Assembly (NCBI GenBank): GCA_019308985.1 | Contig: JAFDHB010000144.1 | Span: 1 to 9,136 of the forward strand | Length of the DNA: 9,136 nt | Source of the DNA: Deltaproteobacteria bacterium | GTDB lineage: Bacteria; Desulfobacterota; DSM-4660; Desulfatiglandales; HGW-15 | Direction: 5' to 3' | Shown: in pieces, positions 1 through 9,136 of the stretch | Numbering within the stretch: the stretch's first letter is position 1 | Layout of the letters: every line of letters starts with the position of its first letter | Position numbers and translations under genes: made by a program | The notes under the pieces: model-generated | The model's database searches: none | What the model was told of the DNA's origin: nothing | The model's input: only the letters and a program-made list of their open reading frames with translations

Positions 1-32
1 CAATGGGGGCGTGGGAACAGCTCAGGAGCGAT

Positions 33-64
33 ATTGAGCCTTGAGAAAAGACCCCCAGGGACCA
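33..64 (+). repeat. left half of a 32-bp perfect inverted repeat flanking the cluster
   Basis: This 32-base sequence (beginning ATTGAGCCTTGAG and ending CCCAGGGACCA) is the exact reverse complement of 8984-9015, almost 9 kb away. A second shared block lies 20 bases further in (85-100). Both face inward, the arrangement of terminal inverted repeats. It sits downstream of the last gene. Confidence 0.95.
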
Positions 65-84
65 TTGATCGCGGTTGATCAGGC

Positions 85-100
85 TTTGGGCAACAGCCTG
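85..100 (+). repeat. left half of a 16-bp perfect inverted repeat (inner block)
   Basis: TTTGGGCAACAGCCTG is the exact reverse complement of 8909-8924. It lies inside the 32-bp block in both copies. The spacing differs: 20 bases here, 59 bases at the right end. Confidence 0.9.
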
Positions 101-104
101 TAAA

Positions 105-150
105 GGTTCAAGGTTCAGAGTTCAAGGTTCAGGGTTCAGGGTTCAAGGTT
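105..150 (+). repeat. heptamer tandem repeat (GGTTCAA/G)
   Basis: Six consecutive 7-base units, GGTTCAA, GGTTCAG, AGTTCAA, GGTTCAG, GGTTCAG and GGTTCAA (105-146), followed by a partial GGTT. Only the last base alternates A/G, apart from one change at the first base of unit three. It is non-coding and lies just inside the left inverted repeat. Such heptamer tracts are, as I recall, frequent between genes in some Desulfobacterota. Confidence 0.9.
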
Positions 151-190
151 GACTCGATTTTGAAGCCAGGCAACCGTGTTGCGTTTTGTG

Positions 191-215
191 GACCGAGGTG
201 ACCAGGTCACCGGTC
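191..215. other. near-perfect palindrome downstream of the last gene
   Basis: GGTGACC (197-203), one central base, GGTCACC (205-211), extended by GACC (191-194) pairing with GGTC (212-215) across a two-base bulge. On the transcript of the cluster it could fold 54 bases past the last stop codon. There is no U-run after it, so it is a poor intrinsic terminator; it could equally be a protein-binding site or a 3'-end stabilising hairpin. Confidence 0.55.
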
Positions 216-268
216 TTCAGTCTCCCGTCAGCCCTCGTTGGTCGGCTGTCATTTGTCCTCGGTCATCG

Positions 269-1135
269 TTACCAGGGCTCCTCGTCCCGCTTCTTGGTAG
301 CCTGGCCGTAGAAATACATCAACCCCGCCAGGCCAGACGCACCCATGATGCCCGAACTCGTAATCCTCAGCTTGTCCAGATCATGGTTCACGATCTTCCT
401 GGGTGCAACGACCAGACTCAGGTCCTGGGGTCTGGTGGGAAGGATCGTCAGCATGTCCGTGCCACCTGCCTCTTTGAGCCCCATGATGTAGGTTGCACCA
501 CCTCTGCGCTGCACCCTTCGCTTGGCCTCCCTTATTATCTCGTCCTTGTAATCGAAGTGGAGCGCTCCGACGGGACAGGCCGCCACGCAGGCCGGCTTCA
601 TGTAGTTGAGTAGAGGGATTCTATTATAACACAAATGGCATTTCCTGGTGACCCTTTTCTCGAAATCAAACCTGGGCACCTTGAAGGGACAGGCCTGGAA
701 GCAATAACGGCAGCCGATACATTTTGATTCGTCTATCACGACCGGCCCGGAGGAAAGCTTAGTGATTGCCCGGACAGGGCATACTCCGACGCATGCGGGC
801 CTGACGCAGTGCTGGCACGCCCAGTGGATATATGTCTTGGCGGCCCGGTTCTTGGAGTCTATGAGCAGGTTGACGACCACCCAGTTGTTTGCATTGAGGT
901 CCAGCTCCCTGTCCGTGATCAGTTCATCCCTTTTTATCTTGAGGTTGTTCCATCTCTTGCAGGCGGACATGCACCGTTTGCACCCTATGCATCTCCCGAT
1001 ATCAACGAGCTTTCCATAGCGCTTTGTCTGTCCCGCGGCTCCACTTGGCTTCCCCAGGGTCATCCCCACTGCGCTCCCGGCAACCAGGCTGAGGAAGGAC
1101 CTCCTGCTTATCTTCTTATTAGGCTTGATCCCCAT
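269..1135 (-). CDS. Tat-exported four-cluster [4Fe-4S] ferredoxin subunit with C-terminal membrane helix (FdnH/HybA-like)
   Basis: A 288-residue electron-transfer subunit with sixteen cysteines in four ferredoxin-type sets: C49/52/55/59, C107/110/115/119, C139/142/145/149 and C166/169/183/187. Each should bind one [4Fe-4S] cluster and together they form a wire. The N-terminus has a near-ideal twin-arginine motif (ISRRSFLSLVAG, residues 9-20), so it should be exported folded by Tat. The stretch at about 212-235 (YIMGLKEAGGTDMLTIL) resembles the region after cluster four in FdnH/HybA proteins. A short hydrophobic helix (about 262-277) followed by KKRDEE would anchor the protein in the membrane with its bulk in the periplasm, as in FdnH. 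It is the last gene of the cluster, 28 bases after the octahaem cytochrome. The ATG at 1135 is chosen because the Tat motif follows it and no other start lies in frame just upstream; its ribosome site (GAGGG, about 14 bases away) is weak. The role as an electron shuttle is firm, but its partner is inferred: it may serve the molybdoenzyme or a membrane protein outside the window. Confidence 0.9.
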   Translation of the reverse strand: MGIKPNKKISRRSFLSLVAGSAVGMTLGKPSGAAGQTKRYGKLVDIGRCIGCKRCMSACKRWNNLKIKRDELITDRELDLNANNWVVVNLLIDSKNRAAKTYIHWACQHCVRPACVGVCPVRAITKLSSGPVVIDESKCIGCRYCFQACPFKVPRFDFEKRVTRKCHLCYNRIPLLNYMKPACVAACPVGALHFDYKDEIIREAKRRVQRRGGATYIMGLKEAGGTDMLTILPTRPQDLSLVVAPRKIVNHDLDKLRITSSGIMGASGLAGLMYFYGQATKKRDEEPW

Positions 1136-1163
1136 ATGGTCTACGTCATCCCTCGACCTTTGA

Positions 1164-2471
1164 CTACCTGTCCCTCTCCAGGAGTTGAAACTCCCTCCGG
1201 TGCACTTTAAATGGCTTTGGCATGTCGCTGACCTTGGCAGCCCTCAAGAAATCTACCAGGTCCTCCGTAGGCGTATCCTTGTGGTGGTGACAACTGTTGC
1301 AGGCATTCGGCTGTTTGTCCTGGCCCCCTTCCAGGAGGGTGCGCTCCGGGAACAGGAAGCGGAAGGTATGGCTGTGCGCATCTCCTGCCTCGCCGATAGA
1401 AGTCACCCTGGGCATGTGACACCTGATACAGCTCCCAAAGGTATGGATCCTGTGGACCGAACGATATTGGTATGTGGAATGGCAGCTCTTGCATAAGTTG
1501 TCTTCAAACAGCCTGGTCTTGGACCTTATGATTACAAGAGGATTGGGTACTTCCCCTATGGCCTGTAAAGCGCTCTTGCTCCTGTGGACATCATGGCAAG
1601 TAATGCAGGTCACCCCCACCTTGGCGTGCTCGCTGCGCTTCCAGTCCAGGTATTGCTGGTTGGAGTGCTTGGATTCTCCGCTGGGCCAGAAATATTCAGG
1701 GTTCTCCTGGGGGTTGAATTCGTTGAAATAGAGCCTCAGGTTAGCCGCTCCCTTGTGGATTTGGTAATCCGCCGGATAAGCGTACTTTCCGGACTTGTCT
1801 CGTCCTCCCGTGTGACAGGAGCCGCATATCTGAGCAGCCAGGGCCGGTGTCAAGCGGTTGGCCTGGATGATGGTGCCTATCTCATAACCGGGTACCGCCT
1901 CCACGTGGTTGCTCCCCGGCCCGTGGCATGCCTCGCAGGCGACGCCCATTTCAACAAAGGTCCTCTTTTCCGGATCAACTCCCGTGGCATGGCAACCGGC
2001 ACACTCGTAGAACCAGTCCCTCTTGGAAGGCTCATCGGGATAATAGGCCTTCCACTCGCCCGTGAATACATTGTACTGGGCGGGGAGCACCATCAGCACG
2101 TTCCCTTCCCACTTCAGATACTGTTGCTTCCACTGGCTCCCGAGCACATAGTCCACATCCTCCTTTGTGAAGGTCCTGACATGGCTTGGAGAGTCGAAAT
2201 CACCTATATTGGCGAGGGGTTCAAGCCTGGCATCCCTCATCATTCTCGAGTGTAGAGAAGTCTTCCATTCCAGGTAAGTCCTTTCGTGGCAACGTTTACA
2301 GGTCTCGGACCCGACAAAGGTGGCCCCGGTCCTGTCCGTGTATTTGCCTTCAAGCCTGGCCTCCTCGATTATGATGCCCTTCTTCTTGAGGGTAACCGTA
2401 GTCGTCACGACCACCGCCAATGCCAGCAGGAATATGACACCTATGATCAACGGCACCTTTGGAATCTTCAT
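1164..2471 (-). CDS. membrane-anchored octahaem c-type cytochrome, cytochrome c554-like
   Basis: A 435-residue protein with eight CXXCH haem-binding motifs beginning at C58, C157, C179, C216, C289, C327, C348 and C391. All have His as proximal ligand and none is CXXCK, so there is no sign of an NrfA-type catalytic haem. Residues 7-27 form one hydrophobic segment followed by KKK without a clear signal-peptidase site, suggesting an uncleaved N-terminal anchor with the haem domain in the periplasm. The text FVGSETCKRCHERTYLEWK before and around haem 1, the C-GPG-H pattern after haem 3 (CEACHGPGSNH) and GDAHSHTFRF near 363-372 are typical of the multihaem cytochrome c554 group. It probably relays electrons between the membrane pool and the molybdoenzyme or an external partner (inference). 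A good ribosome site, GAGGTGA seven bases before the ATG, supports the start. It lies 52 bases after the chaperone gene and 28 bases before the last ferredoxin. A catalytic role like that of octahaem reductases cannot be excluded. Confidence 0.9.
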   Translation of the reverse strand: MKIPKVPLIIGVIFLLALAVVVTTTVTLKKKGIIIEEARLEGKYTDRTGATFVGSETCKRCHERTYLEWKTSLHSRMMRDARLEPLANIGDFDSPSHVRTFTKEDVDYVLGSQWKQQYLKWEGNVLMVLPAQYNVFTGEWKAYYPDEPSKRDWFYECAGCHATGVDPEKRTFVEMGVACEACHGPGSNHVEAVPGYEIGTIIQANRLTPALAAQICGSCHTGGRDKSGKYAYPADYQIHKGAANLRLYFNEFNPQENPEYFWPSGESKHSNQQYLDWKRSEHAKVGVTCITCHDVHRSKSALQAIGEVPNPLVIIRSKTRLFEDNLCKSCHSTYQYRSVHRIHTFGSCIRCHMPRVTSIGEAGDAHSHTFRFLFPERTLLEGGQDKQPNACNSCHHHKDTPTEDLVDFLRAAKVSDMPKPFKVHRREFQLLERDR

Positions 2472-2523
2472 TCTCCTGTCACCTCTGCCTTCACCCGGGG
2501 ATCTTGAAAGGTCACTGTCATGC

Positions 2524-3204
2524 TTACTTCATGGCAGTTGGGCACAAGCCATCCATTTGCTTCATTTCAAACAGTATGAACTGCTTGGTCAAGCCGGCCC
2601 ACAACTCGTAAAAAGGCGACTCTGTCTCATCACTCACCCTGTCACAGAAATCCGGGATCCAGCGACTCAGGTGTTGCTCCAGGAATTTCCGCTCCATGTC
2701 CAGGCAATAGGAGGCCTTCTCTTCATCACCTTCTTCCCAGGCCTGGGATTCCCGGGCGATGACCTGCCCCATGAACTCCAGCTCAACGCTGATATGATCC
2801 GGAAGACCCTTGTATTCAGGCGTGTACCGGAATCCTGCCGATTCAACAAATTTCTTCACCTGAACCGTCGCCTTGCCCCACAATTGCGCGGTTCCACCGC
2901 CTTCCGGTTGATAGTGCACGGACTCATGGGGTGAAATGTGCCTACCGGGGCCTAGAAAAAGCCGGGCATACTCTACGGAAAGCTCATCCAGGGTCTCCTC
3001 TTCAGGTCTTTCAAGGAACTCCTCGGGCCATTGCACGCCCATATCCTCCAGGACAGACCTGAACCCGGGTTCTTTGACCTGCCTCAGGAAATCCCCTGAT
3101 GGTTCTTGGCGAAAGGCCGTGGCCAGCAATCCATATATGCTGCTCCTCTGCTTGGCCACGGCAGCCTTTTCCTGGTTTTTCTCTTTCAAAGCCGCTTCAG
3201 TCAC
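2524..3204 (-). CDS. TorD/DmsD-family molybdoenzyme maturation chaperone
   Basis: A 226-residue cytoplasmic protein without signal peptide, cysteine clusters or membrane helices. Family hallmarks are visible in order: RSSIYGLLATAFRQEP (20-35), EYARLFLGPGRHISPHESVH (78-97), LPDHISVELEFMG (134-146) and the HLSRWIPDFCDRV block (178-190). Members of this family bind the Tat signal peptide of a partner molybdoenzyme, hold it until the pyranopterin cofactor is inserted, and then release it for export. The partner is almost certainly the oxidoreductase encoded immediately upstream, whose stop codon is only six bases away. The start is GTG at 3204, which fits this tight coupling and the family's usual length (about 200-230 residues). 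No strong separate ribosome site is seen, so translation is probably coupled to the upstream gene. Its presence supports the idea that the oxidoreductase carries a molybdenum or tungsten cofactor and is exported folded. It may also help the Tat ferredoxins, but that is speculation. Confidence 0.93.
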   Translation of the reverse strand: MTEAALKEKNQEKAAVAKQRSSIYGLLATAFRQEPSGDFLRQVKEPGFRSVLEDMGVQWPEEFLERPEEETLDELSVEYARLFLGPGRHISPHESVHYQPEGGGTAQLWGKATVQVKKFVESAGFRYTPEYKGLPDHISVELEFMGQVIARESQAWEEGDEEKASYCLDMERKFLEQHLSRWIPDFCDRVSDETESPFYELWAGLTKQFILFEMKQMDGLCPTAMK

Positions 3205-3210
3205 CTGGTC

Positions 3211-5739
3211 CTACACCCTGGTTACCTTGACCACCGTGTCCATCCAGCGCTGTTGCCCGCCGATGGGATCAGGTTTATTGGGTATGACCCAGTTAGGGTG
3301 AACACCATACTCATTCCACCACTTGAGCTTGAGGTCAGGATCATTGTCTCCGGCCATGGGGGCCTTTTTCCCAGAGGCATACCGGCCATATTCCCAGTGC
3401 CCCAGGTGATGGGAAATGGCAACAATCCCCGACACGACTGCCTCCGTCACCCTCGCAGTGGTGATTATTTCACCCACCTCAGACCTGACCTTGATCCTAT
3501 TGCCGTCCTCGATTCCCAATCGCTTGGCGGTCTCAGGGTTTATCATGGCCGGGTTCCTGTGATAGATCTCTGTCAGCCACTTGCAGTTGGCGGACCGGGA
3601 ATGGATATGGACAGGGACCTTGTAGGTCGTCAGGACAAGTTCATCCTTTGCCATCTTTTCATGTTCCGGAACAGGTCTAAAGATCGGCAAGGGTTCAAAA
3701 CCCTTGATCTCTAATAGTTCGGAATAGAGTTCCAGGTAACCTGTCTTATTCACCTTGTCAGGCTTGAAGCCGGCGTAGACCTTGTCGCCGATCTTTTGGC
3801 CCACGTATCCCTTGTAAGCATTCTTGGTATTGGTATATCCTTTTTGTCGAGCTTCCGCTTCGCTCTTGGCAGAGGACTTTTTCCAGTTCCAGTAGGTACC
3901 GGTGGCCTCGTCGAGGATGACCCCATCCTTGCTGAGATCCTTGGCCGGTACCTCCTTCTTGTACATGTAGTACTTTGGTTTGGCCTTCGGGTCATGCCAG
4001 ACCCCGTGGGTCTTCATGTACTCGAACCCCCCTGCTTCCTTGACACCGGGTGTCTTCTCACAGGACATCCTGACATACTCCTCCGCAGAGTTGAAGCCAA
4101 AGGGAAACCCCAGCCTCTTGGCCAATTCGCAGACCACGTCCTTGAAATCCCGGCTCTCTCCCAGGGGTTTCACAAAGGGCTGCCTTATGTAATACTCAGG
4201 AACCTGAGTAGGCGAAGCATGATCCTCCCAGTCCCACCACTCCAGGTACGAGGGATTGGGAAGAATCATGTCGGCCAGGGCCGCTGACTCGTCATAATAG
4301 GCGTTTACGCAGACCGTGAAAGGAATGAGGCTCTCGTCCTTGAGGATGTCGATATTCTCCTGGCACTCGCCGTTGGCATAGACCGGGGTATAGCAGTACC
4401 ACATATATACTTCAGGCCTTCCGTTTCTCCCGTCCTTTATCATCTTCAACACCTGGTGATTTGCATGGTGGTTAGGGTAGGCAATGTCACCCTTGAATCC
4501 GTCCAGGATCTTGAGTTTCTTGGCCTTGGGACCCTTGGGACCCTTGGGACCCTTCCATTTTGCACCAACGGCCCTGCAGCGTCCCCCGGGATTGTCTATG
4601 TTCCCCGTAATGGCGGCAAGCATCTGGACGGCCCTTTCCGTATCAACACCGTTGTAATTGGCCACCGCACCCCTGTAACTGATGACACAGGCCGGTTTGT
4701 TCTTTGCAAATTCATGGGCGATGCTCTTGATCTTTGCCGCAGGGACACCACTCACCTTTTCGGCCCACTCGGGGGTATACTTTGAAAGGTGTACTTTCAG
4801 GGTCGCTACCTTTTGCTTTGTAGTGGCATTCACGTCCTCTGTGGCCCTGATGAAGCGGAAGAATTCCTCGTCGTAAAGACCTGCTTCCATGATTTCCCGG
4901 CACATGGCCAGGACCACCGCGCAATCGGTCCCGGGCCTTATGGGGATCCACTCGGTAGACTTTGCAGCAGTATTTGACAGCCTCACGTCAAAGGTGATCA
5001 TCTTCACACCCCTCTCGGTGATTGCCCGAACCAATCTCTGGGATGTGGGTATATGGTTGGTATGGGACTCCATGACACCGCTTCCGAAATTTACCACGTA
5101 CTTCGTCCTGTCAAAGTCCCAGTTGTCGTAATGCTTGCCCCAGGTCAGCTCCTGGGCCGTCCATTTTCCCCCCTCGCAGATGCTGGTATGGTTGCCCACT
5201 GTCTTTGTACCATAGGCCGAGAGGAACATCTTGACGATCTTGCTGGATGAGGCCTTCATACGTCCGTAATGAAACATAAACTTCTCAGGGTGACCCTCGT
5301 CACGCAGTTTCTTGAGTCGGGCCGTCAATTCGCTCAAGGCCTCCTCCCAGGTGATCCGCTTCCACTTGCCTTCACCTCTCTTCCCTGCCCTCTTCATGGG
5401 ATAGAGGATCCTGTCCGGATCATATAGCTGGTTGATCCCGGCAGCCCCCTTTGCGCAGATCTTTCCCAGTCCCCTGATGGAATTGGGGTTGCCTTCCAGC
5501 TTGACCAGCCTGCCGTCCTCCACGAATCCAATCATGGCATCCCTGGTTACACAGCTCCAGCAGGCAGAGGGCACCATCTTTCTCTCCACTCCGGTCTTTG
5601 GAGAGAAGTCCTTTCCTCCCTTGACAAACTTGACCGTCCCTGCCAGGGCTATGGACCTTCCTGCCTTTCCGGCGGCAAGGACGGCGACGCTCACTGCGCC
5701 AAGCTTGAAAAGATCACGACGTGTGAAGTTTCCTTTCAT
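3211..5739 (-). CDS. Tat-exported molybdopterin oxidoreductase (DMSO-reductase superfamily, PsrA/PhsA/ArrA-like), substrate unknown
   Basis: An 842-residue catalytic subunit. A twin-arginine motif (FTRRDLFKLG, residues 5-14) and hydrophobic stretch to about 34 indicate Tat export. The N-terminal iron-sulfur region reads C60-X2-C63-X3-D67, with the fourth ligand C95 followed by the usual AKG; an Asp thus stands where the family normally has its third cysteine. Next come the bis-pyranopterin-binding domains: KWKRITWEEAL (125-135), the candidate Mo/W ligand C188 in TSICEGGK (185-192), GTDCAVVLAM (270-279), the NIDNPGG loop (380-386), ALADMILPNPSYLE (487-500), and the C-terminal cap domain (about 700-842) with HIHSRSANCKWL and the HRNP loop. 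The cysteine ligand and length fit the polysulfide, thiosulfate, tetrathionate and arsenate reductase branch, but the substrate cannot be read from the sequence. A GPKGPKGPK run at 397-405 is a local repeat expansion. It starts 21 bases after the ferredoxin gene, with AAGGAGG seven bases before the ATG, and is followed at once by its chaperone. Direction of catalysis (reductase or oxidase) is open. Confidence 0.93.
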   Translation of the reverse strand: MKGNFTRRDLFKLGAVSVAVLAAGKAGRSIALAGTVKFVKGGKDFSPKTGVERKMVPSACWSCVTRDAMIGFVEDGRLVKLEGNPNSIRGLGKICAKGAAGINQLYDPDRILYPMKRAGKRGEGKWKRITWEEALSELTARLKKLRDEGHPEKFMFHYGRMKASSSKIVKMFLSAYGTKTVGNHTSICEGGKWTAQELTWGKHYDNWDFDRTKYVVNFGSGVMESHTNHIPTSQRLVRAITERGVKMITFDVRLSNTAAKSTEWIPIRPGTDCAVVLAMCREIMEAGLYDEEFFRFIRATEDVNATTKQKVATLKVHLSKYTPEWAEKVSGVPAAKIKSIAHEFAKNKPACVISYRGAVANYNGVDTERAVQMLAAITGNIDNPGGRCRAVGAKWKGPKGPKGPKAKKLKILDGFKGDIAYPNHHANHQVLKMIKDGRNGRPEVYMWYCYTPVYANGECQENIDILKDESLIPFTVCVNAYYDESAALADMILPNPSYLEWWDWEDHASPTQVPEYYIRQPFVKPLGESRDFKDVVCELAKRLGFPFGFNSAEEYVRMSCEKTPGVKEAGGFEYMKTHGVWHDPKAKPKYYMYKKEVPAKDLSKDGVILDEATGTYWNWKKSSAKSEAEARQKGYTNTKNAYKGYVGQKIGDKVYAGFKPDKVNKTGYLELYSELLEIKGFEPLPIFRPVPEHEKMAKDELVLTTYKVPVHIHSRSANCKWLTEIYHRNPAMINPETAKRLGIEDGNRIKVRSEVGEIITTARVTEAVVSGIVAISHHLGHWEYGRYASGKKAPMAGDNDPDLKLKWWNEYGVHPNWVIPNKPDPIGGQQRWMDTVVKVTRV
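4525..4554 (-). repeat. in-frame 9-bp tandem repeat encoding Lys-Gly-Pro
   Basis: Three perfect copies of the plus-strand unit CTTGGGACC (4525-4533, 4534-4542, 4543-4551) plus three more bases lie inside the molybdoenzyme gene. On the coding strand each unit reads AAG-GGT-CCC, giving KGPKGPKGPK at residues 396-405 in a lysine-rich stretch. Unit length is a multiple of three, so copy number can change without a frameshift. It falls between the NPGG loop and the next conserved block, where insertions are likely to be tolerated on the surface. Confidence 0.9.
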
Positions 5740-5746
5740 GTCACTT

Positions 5747-5753
5747 CCTCCTT
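5747..5753 (-). promoter_or_regulatory. strong ribosome binding site of the molybdoenzyme gene
   Basis: The minus strand reads AAGGAGG, a full match to the anti-Shine-Dalgarno core, seven bases before the ATG at 5739. It is the best site in the cluster and fixes the start that carries the Tat signal. It suggests the catalytic subunit is translated strongly and independently of the upstream ferredoxin. Confidence 0.85.
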
Positions 5754-5760
5754 AAAAGTC

Positions 5761-6624
5761 TTAGGATACCTGGTCCACCCAGGCCTCATTTCCGACGAAC
5801 TTTTTCTTTGCCGTAGCCATGTTCTGGAGTACCCCCCTGGGATCGATGTAAAAGCACATGGGCACCGTATTCTCCCCGGGGAGCAGGGTGGTCTCGTTCC
5901 TTCTCTCTTCCAGCTTGAATTCTTTTACCAGTCTTGACACCTCGCTGTTTGGGTCGTTCAGGTCGCCGAAGATCCTCGCCCTCCCCTGGCAGATATTCAC
6001 ACATGCAGGCTCCACTCCCCTGTCAATCCTGTGCTGGCAGAGGGTGCATTTTGCGATGCCGTTCTTGGTAGAGTCCTTGCCAGCGGTAAGGCGTTTGTTC
6101 CACGTGCGGGCGCCATAGGGGCATTTGTCTATGCACTTGCCGCACCCGATGCAAAGTTCATTATCATACAGGATTAATCCATCGGGCCGTTTGTAGGTGG
6201 CACCATACCGGTACCTGATCGTTTTCCCTTCAGCCGTGATAAACTTCTTGCGACCCTTGGGGTATTCCGGGCAGATCTTGACACAGGGAGGAATCCCGTC
6301 TTCCACATTGCCCTCACAGTGGTTGCAGATCCTCGGCATCAGGAACTTTTCAGCCCGCGGAAAGGCGCCATTTACCTCTTCATATACGGCCGTCCTGAAG
6401 GCCCCGAGAGGGACGTGGAACTCCGCCTTGCACGCTACGGTGCAGGCCCTGCACCCTATGCACCTACGCAGGTCAATGATGAATGTCCACCTAGGTGCCC
6501 TCTTGCGGCTCTTTCTGGCTGCCAATGCGGTTCCCGCCGGCACCAACCCTACTGCTGCACCTACGGCGACGGCCCCCGCCCCTTTTATCACCTGCCGCCT
6601 TGATAGATTGGTCATTTCGCTCAT
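5761..6624 (-). CDS. Tat-exported four-cluster [4Fe-4S] subunit (PsrB/TtrB/NrfC-like)
   Basis: A 287-residue iron-sulfur protein, probably the direct electron-transfer subunit of the molybdoenzyme that follows 21 bases later. The N-terminus has a Tat motif (LSRRQVIKGAG, 7-17), an alanine-rich hydrophobic core and a likely cleavage after ALA (33-35). Sixteen cysteines form four sets: C55/58/61/65, C100/103/114/118, C158/161/164/168 and C193/196/208/212, each expected to bind [4Fe-4S]. The tail of set four, CQGRARIFGDLNDPNSEVSRL, is the signature seen in the beta subunits of polysulfide, tetrathionate and related reductases (PsrB, TtrB, NrfC). Set two has an enlarged loop of ten residues between its second and third cysteines. 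Unlike the other ferredoxin in this cluster (269-1135) it has no C-terminal membrane helix, so it should be soluble and dock on the catalytic subunit. The start is supported by AGGAGA seven bases before the ATG, within a long purine-rich leader. It carries its own Tat signal although such subunits often travel with their partner. Confidence 0.92.
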   Translation of the reverse strand: MSEMTNLSRRQVIKGAGAVAVGAAVGLVPAGTALAARKSRKRAPRWTFIIDLRRCIGCRACTVACKAEFHVPLGAFRTAVYEEVNGAFPRAEKFLMPRICNHCEGNVEDGIPPCVKICPEYPKGRKKFITAEGKTIRYRYGATYKRPDGLILYDNELCIGCGKCIDKCPYGARTWNKRLTAGKDSTKNGIAKCTLCQHRIDRGVEPACVNICQGRARIFGDLNDPNSEVSRLVKEFKLEERRNETTLLPGENTVPMCFYIDPRGVLQNMATAKKKFVGNEAWVDQVS

Positions 6625-6742
6625 GATGCTCTCCTTTCCTTGCCTTTTCTTTTTTTACTAACTGATCTAATCGTTACAACCTTCAAGCCGGGATGCTTTC
6701 AGAAAAGCCCCAGATACAAGACGCGCAAATCTTTAGGAATGA

Positions 6743-6763
6743 GGCGTACATATGAAGTACGCC
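6743..6763. repeat. perfect 7-bp-stem hairpin
   Basis: GGCGTAC (6743-6749), a 7-base loop, then GTACGCC (6757-6763). Flanking AATGA (6738-6742) can pair with TCATT (6768-6772) across a small internal bulge, extending the structure. There is no T-run after it on either strand, so it is not a standard intrinsic terminator. It is the centre of the palindromic element in this spacer and could affect processing or stability of the transcript. Confidence 0.8.
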
Positions 6764-6774
6764 GCAATCATTTA

Positions 6775-6874
6775 CCCCGTTAAATAACTCCTAATTCAGA
6801 GAACGTCGGGCCCATGATGTTCTTAGAGGATTCTGGACCTTTGATTCAGCTCCACAAATTCCCATTTAACGGGG
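6775..6874. repeat. 100-base segment bounded by 11-bp inverted repeats
   Basis: CCCCGTTAAAT at 6775-6785 is the exact reverse complement of ATTTAACGGGG at 6864-6874. The enclosed 78 bases contain a second hairpin (AGAACGTC at 6800-6807 with GATGTTCT at 6816-6823, one G-T pair). The arrangement looks like a small non-autonomous element nested in the larger palindromic repeat, or alternatively a long stem-loop. No target-site duplication is obvious at its borders. Confidence 0.55.
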
Positions 6875-6922
6875 CAGGGATGAAGCGCAACGCAGAAATT
6901 GGACTTCTTACGAAGCCATCAA

Positions 6923-8533
6923 TTAGTTCTGGGTTTCTTCTTCTATGTAGTCCAGCACATCCTCGAAGCTCGTGATGGCCGCATCAATCAGGAACATGGA
7001 ATACTTCTTGTTATGAACTCCGTTCCCGAACCTCACTATGTCCAGGTTCTCCCGGCCTTCCCTCAGCATCCCCATTGCCTCGTGCATCTTGGCCTTGGAG
7101 AGTTTTGATTTGGCCTCCTCCAGGGCCGTCAGAGCCTCTTCTTTCACCTCCTTGGCAAACTCCAACTCCCTGCTCAATTCCGCTTTCCATTCCCTGAGCA
7201 TCTTTTCATGATCTTTGGTGTGGCATCTGACGCAGGCCCTTGCCGAGCCCACCAAGGTCCTCTCTCCCTTGGCAGTCGTGCCCAGCTCGATATGGCAGCC
7301 CAGACAATTCGTCCTGGCCCTGCGCATGGGATCCGGGGCTTCAATCACTCCCCTTCGCTTCAAGCCTGCTGCCAGCAGTCGCTGGTACCGATGGGGATCA
7401 GGGTGGCACGTCCCGCAAGCGGCCTGCACGGTCTGGTCCTTGATCACTTCCTTGATGGTCATTTTGGGCCCTGACTTGGGAAGTGTCAGAAGAAGTTTCG
7501 CCTTTTGGTGCCTGACCGGTTCGTGGCACTCCACGCACCTGGTATTCTTTACGGTGACATGCTTCTGGTGCAGGAGTTTTCCGTTTTTCTTTTCCTTCAG
7601 GTCCTTTGCCCTGTCATGGCATGACTCGCAATTCCCCTGCTTGATCCTTCCCGCACCCAGCACCACGGCCGTTCTGAGTTGACCCTTTTCAAAGTATGCC
7701 TGGGAGTGCCCCCCACCTGCTGCCTGAATGAGTTCGAAGTGGCAGCTGCTGCACGACACTCCCGCATCTTTCAGCATCCGGTGCGTGATGGGTTTTTCGC
7801 CCGATGTCTGGATGGGCTTTTCCGGGAGCTTGTGGCAGAGATCGCATCTTGCCCTTTCCTGGTTGAACTTGGCCTTGGTGAAATGGCACAGGAAACAGGA
7901 GCCCTTCGAGACTTCGAAATGCTTGTTCTCGGTCTCGTGCTGGTGACACGAAGCACAATTGACCTGCTGGCCCTCGATCTGTTTTGCCTTGTCCAGGTGG
8001 GGCTCGTGTACGAAGGCCACTTTCCCGGTAAACTTGATCTTCTTGGTCCTGAACTCGTCCTTGGGGTTGCCGTGGCAGTTGGAGGTCAGGCAACTGGCAT
8101 CCACGATCCGCGGCCTGGTCCTTATGACGCCGCCCCCCAGCTCAATGTATGAAAAACGTTCCGGCGGCTTTTTGGGTATGTGCTTGATCTCGTCTTTTGA
8201 TCCGGATACATGGCCCCTGTAAGCCTTTTTCTTTTTGGGCGGGTAATGGCACTCAACGCATCCAACGTTGTTGTGTTTTCCCTTTTTCCACAGTTCGTAT
8301 CCCTTCTGGACGATATTGGGATAGGTGAGGATGTGACAGTAGCCGCAAAAGGGTTGAGGTGCCGGGATGGAAAGCCGGGCGATCGCAAATTCCTTTGCGG
8401 CTTCCTCCCCTTGCCCCGCTCTTGTGGATTCAGGGAGCAAAAAGAAAAGGGGGCCTGCCGCCAAAAGAAGGGGAAAAACCACAAGCCATTTAGTTTTATT
8501 GATCATGTTGTCTTCCATCTCGATCCTCTTCAT
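6923..8533 (-). CDS. 12-haem c-type cytochrome with NapC/NrfH-like N-terminus and helical C-terminal tail
   Basis: A 536-residue exported protein. Residues 16-33 form a hydrophobic signal or anchor; STRAG (36-40) offers a possible cleavage site. Twelve haem motifs are visible: eleven CXXCH (starting at C63, C92, C193, C213, C230, C261, C302, C333, C373, C410, C434) and one expanded CX4CH (C148-LTSN-C153-H154). The first two, with the WKKGKHNNVGCVECHYP text between 82 and 98, resemble the quinol-facing NapC/NrfH family, so the protein may take electrons from menaquinol and pass them along its haem chain (inference). The remainder has no close family that I recognise. The last 100 residues are haem-free, charged and helical, with a coiled-coil-like stretch at about 446-492 and a GVHNKKYSMFLIDAAI segment (505-520) of the type that ends NrfA-like and other multihaem cytochromes. 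AAGGAG five bases before the ATG fixes the start. The gene overlaps the receiver gene by 38 bases, and a 297-base spacer follows it. Confidence 0.88.
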   Translation of the reverse strand: MKRIEMEDNMINKTKWLVVFPLLLAAGPLFFLLPESTRAGQGEEAAKEFAIARLSIPAPQPFCGYCHILTYPNIVQKGYELWKKGKHNNVGCVECHYPPKKKKAYRGHVSGSKDEIKHIPKKPPERFSYIELGGGVIRTRPRIVDASCLTSNCHGNPKDEFRTKKIKFTGKVAFVHEPHLDKAKQIEGQQVNCASCHQHETENKHFEVSKGSCFLCHFTKAKFNQERARCDLCHKLPEKPIQTSGEKPITHRMLKDAGVSCSSCHFELIQAAGGGHSQAYFEKGQLRTAVVLGAGRIKQGNCESCHDRAKDLKEKKNGKLLHQKHVTVKNTRCVECHEPVRHQKAKLLLTLPKSGPKMTIKEVIKDQTVQAACGTCHPDPHRYQRLLAAGLKRRGVIEAPDPMRRARTNCLGCHIELGTTAKGERTLVGSARACVRCHTKDHEKMLREWKAELSRELEFAKEVKEEALTALEEAKSKLSKAKMHEAMGMLREGRENLDIVRFGNGVHNKKYSMFLIDAAITSFEDVLDYIEEETQN

Positions 8534-8882
8534 GAATGCTCCTTAACCAGTAAACGAGTTCGTCGGTATCCACGGGCTTGGTCAAGCATGCATAGATGTG
8601 GTAACAAATGGACTCCTTGAACTCCGGGTTCAGCCTGTGTTTCGTGAGGCCCAGGAAGTATACGCCCGGGTGCTTGAGGGTAAGCTCCCTGATCTTCCCG
8701 TTATCAATTCCCCTGGCATTCAGGTCAATGACCGCGGCAAGACATTGCCTGTCACCTAGGTGACTAATGAAAGAGGACAGCTCATGCACAGGCACGGCCT
8801 TGAACCCTTCCCTTTTCACAAAGGAACACAGGCGCTTACATTCCTCTCGGTCTTCGCAAAAAATGACTGTGCACTTCTTCAT
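8496..8882 (-). CDS. single-domain response regulator (CheY-like receiver)
   Basis: A 128-residue cytoplasmic protein consisting only of a receiver domain. The expected active-site residues are all present: acidic pair E10/D11 after the first beta strand (CTVIFCED), phospho-acceptor D53 in AAVIDLN, the switch threonine T80 in YFLGLTKH, and lysine K102 in the LTKPVDTDEL motif. There is no DNA-binding or enzymatic output domain, so it should act by binding a partner or as a relay, and no histidine kinase lies in the window. It is the first gene of the cluster. Its 3' end overlaps the 12-haem cytochrome gene by 38 bases, and that gene's ribosome site lies within this coding region, so the two are probably translationally coupled. 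The start is the ATG at 8882; the upstream site (GGATGG) is weak. It is unusual for such a regulator to be fused translationally to a cytochrome gene; a role in sensing redox state is only a guess. Confidence 0.85.
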   Translation of the reverse strand: MKKCTVIFCEDREECKRLCSFVKREGFKAVPVHELSSFISHLGDRQCLAAVIDLNARGIDNGKIRELTLKHPGVYFLGLTKHRLNPEFKESICYHIYACLTKPVDTDELVYWLRSIHEEDRDGRQHDQ

Positions 8883-8908
8883 TAGCCATCCAACTTGTCA
8901 AACTAAGT

Positions 8909-8924
8909 CAGGCTGTTGCCCAAA
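8909..8924 (-). repeat. right half of the 16-bp perfect inverted repeat (inner block)
   Basis: CAGGCTGTTGCCCAAA is the exact reverse complement of 85-100. It lies 26 bases upstream of the receiver gene start and would fall in its 5' leader or promoter. Confidence 0.9.
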
Positions 8925-8983
8925 TCTTTTCCGCTCCACCCATTTATGCGAAAAGAAAATAGCGCTCATGGTATTTGCTGTTG

Positions 8984-9015
8984 TGGTCCCTGGGGGTCTT
9001 TTCTCAAGGCTCAAT
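8984..9015 (-). repeat. right half of the 32-bp perfect inverted repeat
   Basis: Exact reverse complement of 33-64. Read on the minus strand it has the same direction as the genes, about 100 bases upstream of the receiver gene start, so it lies where a promoter or operator would be. The match stops at both edges (8983 and 9016). Confidence 0.95.
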
Positions 9016-9136
9016 CAAATTGCTTCCAGGCACTTACAAGGCACAAACAGTTAATAGAAGGCCACAGTAGCCCCAAGAGATCATCTTCACCGGAGCCTCC
9101 ACCTCTCGCCCCTATTGAGGAACCCCTATGAGGACA

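What the first reader, a model, noticed from the sequence alone, without database searches (positions are those of the whole stretch)
33..9015. A two-block inverted repeat (32 bp + 16 bp, both perfect) brackets the entire redox cluster
Positions 33-64 and 8984-9015 are exact reverse complements over 32 bases, and 85-100 and 8909-8924 over 16 bases, in the same inside-outside order at both ends. Chance cannot explain a perfect 32-base match in 9 kb. All seven genes lie between the copies. This looks like the ends of a mobile or invertible unit (two recognition sites per end, as some transposons have), or a dispersed intergenic repeat that happens to flank it. No transposase or recombinase is present, so a unit of this kind would have to be moved in trans. 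Inversion between the copies would also swap the sequence upstream of the first gene.
Basis: partly seen in the sequence, partly recalled or inferred. Interest (0 to 1): 0.8.

Follow-up and report, generated by a model that had tools for sequence, protein, structure and literature searches.

The report
Cut-open transposon repeats at contig ends
The matching sequences at the two ends of this stretch are the inward halves of a small, scattered jumping element at which the assembled piece was cut off, so they are not the ends of a mobile unit carrying the redox genes; the element family itself is unusual because one hairpin core travels in two unrelated transposon casings.

Summary
The two perfect inverted blocks are real, the 32-mer far beyond chance, but they are not the ends of a unit carrying the redox genes. 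Each window end is half of a dispersed MITE of about 320 bp. The 16-bp block is its terminal inverted repeat (CAGGCTGTTGCCCAAA, 4-bp target duplications); the 32-bp block is the arm of a ~215-bp hairpin core inside it. A Deltaproteobacteria MAG (G001) holds the core signature at 58 places. One of its contigs repeats window 1-105 and 9119-9136 exactly beside unrelated genes. A relative (G017) keeps all seven genes collinear with no match to core or shells. The window is probably a whole contig: its enzyme is listed in two contigs, the longer 9145 bp, and contigs of G001 also stop inside the core. Unexpectedly, one core sits in two unrelated shells: of 40 full cores, 21 in this shell and 19 in an IS4-type shell with 9-bp duplications. 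The arms change in step (13 of 31 pairs, 0 of 500 shuffles). A new MITE family with one odd feature; the mobile-unit reading fails.

The parts
8909..9136 (.). Right-hand MITE copy (shell B), first half only; cut by the end of the contig
   Evidence: TIR at 8909-8924, core arm at 8984; 81.7% identical over a 153-column stretch to a copy in L005; L001 1-18 equals its last 18 bases
8909..8924 (.).
   Evidence: Same sequence forms the ends of shell-B copies with 4-bp target duplications
8905..8908 (.). AAGT, flank where one half of a 4-bp target duplication would lie; partner beyond the contig
   Evidence: position inferred
8984..9136 (.). First 153 nt of the ~215-nt hairpin core
   Evidence: Aligned to 40 full cores, best identity 78%
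8984..9015 (.).
   Evidence: arm helix of alignment A1
1..100 (.). Left-hand MITE copy (shell B), second half only; cut by the start of the contig
   Evidence: Window 1-105 identical to L001 17-121
1..64 (.). Last part of the hairpin core
   Evidence: Aligned to 40 full cores, best identity 75%
33..64 (.). Right arm of the core hairpin (other copy of the 32-bp block)
   Evidence: one exact and two 3-mismatch matches in G001
85..100 (.). Terminal inverted repeat TTTGGGCAACAGCCTG of the left-hand copy (the 16-bp block)
101..104 (.). TAAA, putative half of a 4-bp target duplication; partner beyond the contig
   Evidence: TAAA, TTAA, TTGA, TTTA are among the duplicated targets of shell B; the same TAAA follows the copy in L001
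269..1135 (-). 4Fe-4S ferredoxin-type subunit (redox cluster, not part of the element)
   Evidence: Pfam Fer4_11; 69% identical in G017
1164..2471 (-). Multihaem cytochrome c, C554 type
   Evidence: 74% in G017
2524..3204 (-). Nitrate-reductase-delta/TorD-type chaperone
   Evidence: PF02613; 57% in G017
3211..5739 (-). Molybdopterin oxidoreductase catalytic subunit
   Evidence: PF00384, PF01568, PF04879; 81% in G017
5761..6624 (-). 4Fe-4S subunit with Tat signal
   Evidence: 76% in G017
6923..8533 (-). Multihaem cytochrome c
   Evidence: PF14522; 61% in G017
8496..8882 (-). 128-aa protein, no Pfam match; first gene of the cluster
   Evidence: 40% in G017

Best explanation
The window is a contig of an uncultured bacterium, probably a Deltaproteobacterium, cut at both ends inside copies of one dispersed non-autonomous transposon (a MITE). 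Because the element is itself an inverted repeat, the half left at the right end of the contig and the half left at the left end are reverse complements of each other, which looks like an inverted repeat around the genes. The MITE moves by a transposase in trans that recognises the terminal repeats and duplicates 4 bp of target. The cluster merely lies between two insertions. Shown: family, copy number, termini, target duplications in other copies, an exact half-copy beside unrelated genes, the cluster conserved without it in one relative. Inferred: movement in trans (the transposase of this shell was not found), that the window is a whole contig, and that assembly broke there because copies are repeated.
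For: L001 reproduces window 1-105 and 9119-9136 at 100% in a contig with an SBF-family transporter, an ABC-2 membrane protein and other genes. Core query in G001: 40 of 113 first-look candidates were scored and all 40 gave a match at E <= 9.1e-40. Core signature at 58 places in G001, 0 in the reversed control. Shell-B TIR (up to 2 mismatches) at 113 places in G001, 0 control. 4-bp duplications: of 21 shell-B cores 19 had both ends located, 8 of 19 exact and 14 of 19 at 3 of 4 or better; 0 of 5000 shuffles reach either. G017 keeps 7 of 7 genes in order with no match to core, shell A or shell B. Window protein in 2 contigs, longest 9145 bp. At least 11 contig ends of G001 fall inside a core by hand count; about 2.1 expected, P about 1.5e-5.
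Against: No complete copy of the window's own subfamily was seen: both halves are cut, and the 40 full cores are at most 78% identical to a half in a fixed-length alignment (BLAST stretches reach 86%). The flanks AAGT and TAAA cannot be checked as duplications. No shell-B ends with room for a transposase between them were found in the loci looked at. The window's own genome is not held, and G001 has no long match to window 3000-6700, so the window's copies and G001's are compared across genomes that may differ. The contig-end estimate assumes 418 contigs and 60 cores, and the count covers only loci that I held. That the second contig stops at the same places is inferred from its length alone.
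Confidence: 0.92

Rival explanations
1. The cluster and its two flanking MITE copies form a composite unit that moves as a whole, transposed in trans from the outer ends of the two elements.
For: Two copies in the same orientation do flank the cluster. Integrons flanked by identical MITEs are described in Acinetobacter (PMC10969869, figure legend among the passages seen).
Against: G017 has the genes collinear inside a longer operon with no copy. With 58 core places per 5.1 Mb and contigs that break at them, copies at both contig ends are expected without any unit. The outer ends lie beyond the window, so this is not excluded.
Confidence: 0.04
2. The window is a small circle (about 9.13 kb) with a single element, opened in the middle of that element.
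For: Last and first bases meet at the same point of the element with a 2-base overlap; the two arms match perfectly although the other cores differ clearly from them.
Against: No replication gene among the seven (one of them has no Pfam match); the genes are collinear with part of a longer operon on a 31.6-kb contig in G017; the flanks AAGT and TAAA do not match as a duplication; assembled circles normally show an overlap of k-mer length, not 2 (general knowledge, no call).
Confidence: 0.04
3. Site-specific inversion of the cluster between the two 32-bp arms (phase variation of the upstream region).
For: Perfect inverted arms; the right copy lies 26 bp upstream of the first start codon.
Against: No recombinase family among the seven proteins; the arms belong to a hairpin present in dozens of copies, so the pairing is not specific to this cluster.
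Confidence: 0.02

Closest known systems
Bacterial MITEs derived from insertion sequences (review PMC10969869, passages seen)
   Same: Short, terminal inverted repeats, target duplications, many copies, strong fold-back structure, no transposase of their own
   Different: Here one ~215-bp core is shared by two shells with unrelated termini and different duplication lengths
IS4-family insertion sequences (NCBIfam NF033592), for shell A only
   Same: IS copies in relatives G067 and G005 have shell-A-like ends around a transposase scoring 208.5 and 265.7 bits against a cut-off of 115; the G005 copy has the 9-bp repeat ATACCACAT on both sides (read)
   Different: A search with the G067 transposase found no relative in G001 at E <= 1e-20; the window's copies are shell B, not A
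REPINs moved by RAYT tyrosine transposases (PMC3116915, passages seen)
   Same: Hairpin elements with compensatory changes in the paired parts
   Different: Target duplications of 4 or 9 bp are seen here, which fits DDE-type transposition; no RAYT was looked for
TIMEs, Tn3-derived miniature elements that form mosaic transposons (PMC4133298, passages seen)
   Same: Non-autonomous and able to form mosaics with foreign modules
   Different: In the passages seen the modules taken up are functional ones such as a plasmid replication or a recombination system; here the shared module is a non-coding hairpin. Ends were not compared with Tn3 ends

Membership tests
MITE (window element, shell B) | Short, no transposase gene | tested here: met
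   Of 11 shell-B copies measured end to end, 10 are 307-325 bp; the eleventh read 421 because its right end was taken in a neighbouring copy. The window's own copies are cut
MITE (window element, shell B) | Terminal inverted repeats | tested here: met
   CAGGCTGTTGCCCAAA / TTTGGGCAACAGCCTG; both ends located in 19 of 21 shell-B cores, up to 5 mismatches allowed
MITE (window element, shell B) | Target-site duplication | tested here: met
   4 bp; 8 of 19 exact, 14 of 19 at 3 of 4 or better, 0 of 5000 shuffles; not testable for the window's own two copies
MITE (window element, shell B) | Many dispersed copies | tested here: met
   113 TIR places in G001; 20 or more places in 8 of 85 genomes of the order, G001 included
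MITE (window element, shell B) | Autonomous partner with the same ends | tested here: inconclusive
   In the 30 loci the pairs of ends found were 141-286 bp apart; in the 7 stretches neighbouring ends bound only short elements. ORFs there were listed, not scanned for transposases; no exhaustive search
Composite transposon carrying the redox cluster | Target duplication just outside 33 and 9015 | tested here: not met
   CAGGAGCGAT against CAAATTGCTT (read). For a composite ending at the outer ends of the two MITEs this is not testable, those ends being beyond the window
Composite transposon carrying the redox cluster | Cluster found only together with the repeats | tested here: not met
   G017 holds 7 of 7 genes collinear without core or shells; it is the only relative with the cluster that was examined, the other 16 family genomes gave no long match to window 3000-6700
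Invertible unit | Inverted orientation seen in reads | not testable with these tools
   No reads available
IS4-derived MITE (shell A) | IS4-type transposase flanked by the same kind of ends | tested here: met
   L085 with ends at 69 and 1374 in G067, L191 979-2314 in G005, ends similar, not identical; none found in G001 itself
REPIN/RAYT | RAYT tyrosine transposase | not tested
   No search for RAYT genes was made
REPIN/RAYT | Spread without target duplication (recalled for IS200-type transposition) | tested here: not met
   Duplications present in both shells

The most novel reading that the evidence does not exclude
The ~215-bp hairpin core is a unit of its own: it is kept by selection or conversion on its fold (arms change in step) and has passed between two unrelated transposase systems, an IS4-type shell with 9-bp duplications and a second shell with 4-bp duplications, so that one non-coding passenger exploits two transposases in the same genome.
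Probability: 0.3. Interest if true: 0.6.

Novelty: new variant of a known kind. Interest (0 to 1): 0.38.

Why it matters
For the finding itself: a striking inverted repeat around a gene cluster can come simply from a contig that ends inside two copies of a palindromic repeat, so inverted repeats close to contig ends need this check before a mobile unit is claimed. For the element: if one hairpin core really is carried by two transposon shells, MITE families are less tightly bound to one transposase than the usual picture of a shrunken IS suggests, and the covarying arms offer a way to ask what keeps such cores intact.

Tried and rejected
Own-genome searches were not possible. No match came from plasmids (whole window, near; window 1-110, distant), phages (window 8984-9136, distant) or viral contigs (exact 21-mer). 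Rfam gave no family, at gathering scores for window, L001, L003 and L004 and up to E = 1 for three loci. A structured-RNA reading of the core was tried: one core folds far better than its shuffles (z -7.3), but that is carried by the arms; the interior hairpin does not covary convincingly (1 of 10 pairs with changes on both sides, reached by 459 of 500 shuffles; further pair types reached by 496 of 500; three other measures exceeded every shuffle). Invertible and composite units were considered and rejected as above. A preference of the core for one gene arrangement was looked for and not seen: of 40 cores 16 lie between codirectional ORFs, 5 divergent, 5 convergent, 5 at a contig edge, and 9 overlap a mechanically chosen ORF of at least 110 aa. 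The autonomous partner of shell B was looked for in a small set and not found.

Results against parts of my reading: each core's own partner arm is strictly its best partner in only 4 of 40 copies, although in-copy complementarity (95.3%) exceeds the between-copy mean (86.9%) and none of 5000 permutations reached it; relatedness within two subfamilies contributes to this. One shell-B core (L003:2451) groups with the shell-A cores, its nearest node at support 0.164; the tree is unrooted, so it does not tell in which direction the core passed. Of 24 paired shell-A copies 9 show no clear 9-bp duplication (6 of 9 or fewer), and 5 of 19 shell-B copies match at 2 of 4 or fewer. The mismatched-flank control reached 7 of 9 or more in 29 of 2000 draws; the draw could pair a copy with a duplicate row of itself.

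Literature: nine searches, two of them empty and three shown only in part, seen as titles and starts of abstracts; passages were read in four papers. Nothing seen there describes a bacterial MITE core shared by two shells, but the library lacks most subscription papers.
Full report
CHECK. Both inverted repeats are present and exact at the stated coordinates. About 2e-12 exact 32-nt inverted matches are expected by chance in such a sequence. The genes are an operon-like set of seven on the minus strand: a molybdopterin oxidoreductase with two 4Fe-4S proteins, a nitrate-reductase-delta/TorD-type chaperone, two multihaem cytochromes and a small protein without a Pfam match.

THE ENDS ARE HALVES OF ONE KIND OF ELEMENT. 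A scan of genome contigs for 21 inner bases of the 32-mer found one contig, JAFDHO010000258.1 of a Deltaproteobacteria MAG (L001, genome handle G001). Its bases 17-121 equal window 1-105 and its bases 1-18 equal window 9119-9136, all at 100%. So what follows the right end of the window is, in that contig, what begins the left end. The element is about 320 bp and is a nested palindrome; each window end keeps the half that faces the genes. That contig carries an SBF-family transporter, an Fe-S protein, an ABC-2 membrane protein and a 23S rRNA intervening-sequence protein (four ORFs scanned), unrelated to the redox cluster.

DISPERSED FAMILY. In G001 the core query scored 40 of 113 first-look candidates, all 40 strong (E <= 9.1e-40); a 22-nt core signature, up to 3 mismatches, occurs at 58 places with 0 in the reversed control. 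In the other 16 genomes of the family no core matched at 1e-6, and among 84 other genomes of the order only single three-mismatch hits occur, in 5.

TERMINI AND TARGET DUPLICATIONS. Two shells carry the core. Shell B, that of the window, ends in CAGGCTGTTGCCCAAA / TTTGGGCAACAGCCTG and is flanked by 4-bp duplications such as TTAA, TTGA, TAAA and TTTA: of 21 shell-B cores 19 had both ends located, 8 of 19 exact and 14 of 19 at three of four or better; 0 of 5000 shuffles reached either number. Shell A has the ends TGTCCGGTTAGGATTTTGCA, as a rule preceded by six bases of the type CANTNA, and is flanked by 9-bp duplications: of 24 paired copies (21 in G001, 2 in G005, 1 in G012) 8 are exact over 9 and 15 match at 7 or more of 9, all 15 in one register; 29 of 2000 mismatched draws did so. 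Insertion sequences with shell-A-like ends and an IS4-family transposase lie in G067 and G005; a search with the G067 transposase found none in G001 at E <= 1e-20. Shell-B ends occur at 20 or more places in 8 of 85 genomes of the order, G001 included; the copies outside G001 that I read have other interiors. Shell-A ends occur at 88 places in G005, and the two G005 copies read have a different core.

SHARED CORE. Of 56 primary core hits found in the loci held (reverse-strand and weak rows set aside by hand), I aligned the 40 that were complete (alignment A1); 16 partial or degraded ones were left out. Of the 40, 19 sit in shell A and 21 in shell B. On an unrooted tree of the core interiors the shell-A cores group together (support 0.979), with one shell-B core (L003:2451) among them. 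At least one passage of the core between shells is needed, two if that exception is real; the direction cannot be told.

ARMS. The arm helix is paired in 97.2% of cells, 13 of 31 pairs show changes on both sides and 76 cells do so against 23.4 in shuffles; 0 of 500 shuffles reach any of the five measures. Selection on the fold, conversion between arms, and subfamily history can all contribute, and these data do not separate them; own arms are strictly the best partners in only 4 of 40 copies.

WHY THE ENDS COINCIDE WITH THE REPEATS. The window's own enzyme is listed in two contigs, the longest 9145 bp. If the other is the 9136-bp window, the window is a whole contig and a second assembly is only 9 bases longer; this is inferred from the lengths. 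In G001 at least 11 contig ends fall inside a core (hand count; contig lengths where shown, otherwise from loci cut short), against about 2.1 expected for 418 contigs and 60 cores, P about 1.5e-5. Repeats at both ends of a short contig are thus expected, not a sign of a unit.

RELATIVES. G017, in the family of G001, has all seven genes in the same order (40 to 81% amino-acid identity), and its genes run on into NrfD and further cytochrome-type genes. G017 has no core, no shell A and no shell B match. It is the only relative with the cluster that I examined.

VERDICT. Observation confirmed; mobile or invertible unit not supported; dispersed-repeat reading supported. The element is a new MITE family whose one unusual feature is a single hairpin core in two unrelated shells. 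What that core does, if anything, is open.

Noticed in passing
window 8883-8908: The right-hand MITE copy begins 26 bp upstream of the first start codon of the cluster, so the operon's promoter must lie in or beyond the element; a consensus scan showed no sigma-70-like site on the minus strand there.
   Followed up: partly
window 103-150: A 7-bp tandem repeat (AAGGTTC, 6.9 copies) directly beside the left-hand copy.
   Followed up: no
window 1-268; L082 11860-13317: In G017 an NrfD-type gene overlaps the end of the last shared gene; in the window the 268 bp after that gene show no such gene before the contig ends.
   Followed up: partly
window 4524-4554: A 9-bp tandem repeat (3.4 copies) inside the molybdopterin subunit gene, giving KGPKGPKGPK.
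   Followed up: no
window 8496-8882: 128-aa first gene of the cluster without any Pfam match; 40% identical in G017.
   Followed up: no
L091 974-1271, L099 1223-1520: In G005 the IS4-type shell holds a different fold-back core whose arms (GGGTCTCTTTTCAATGG in L091) resemble those here in layout.
   Followed up: partly
L001 and G001: G001 has no long match to window 3000-6700 although one of its contigs shares 105 identical bases with the window; whether that contig belongs to the bin or to the window's species is open.
   Followed up: no
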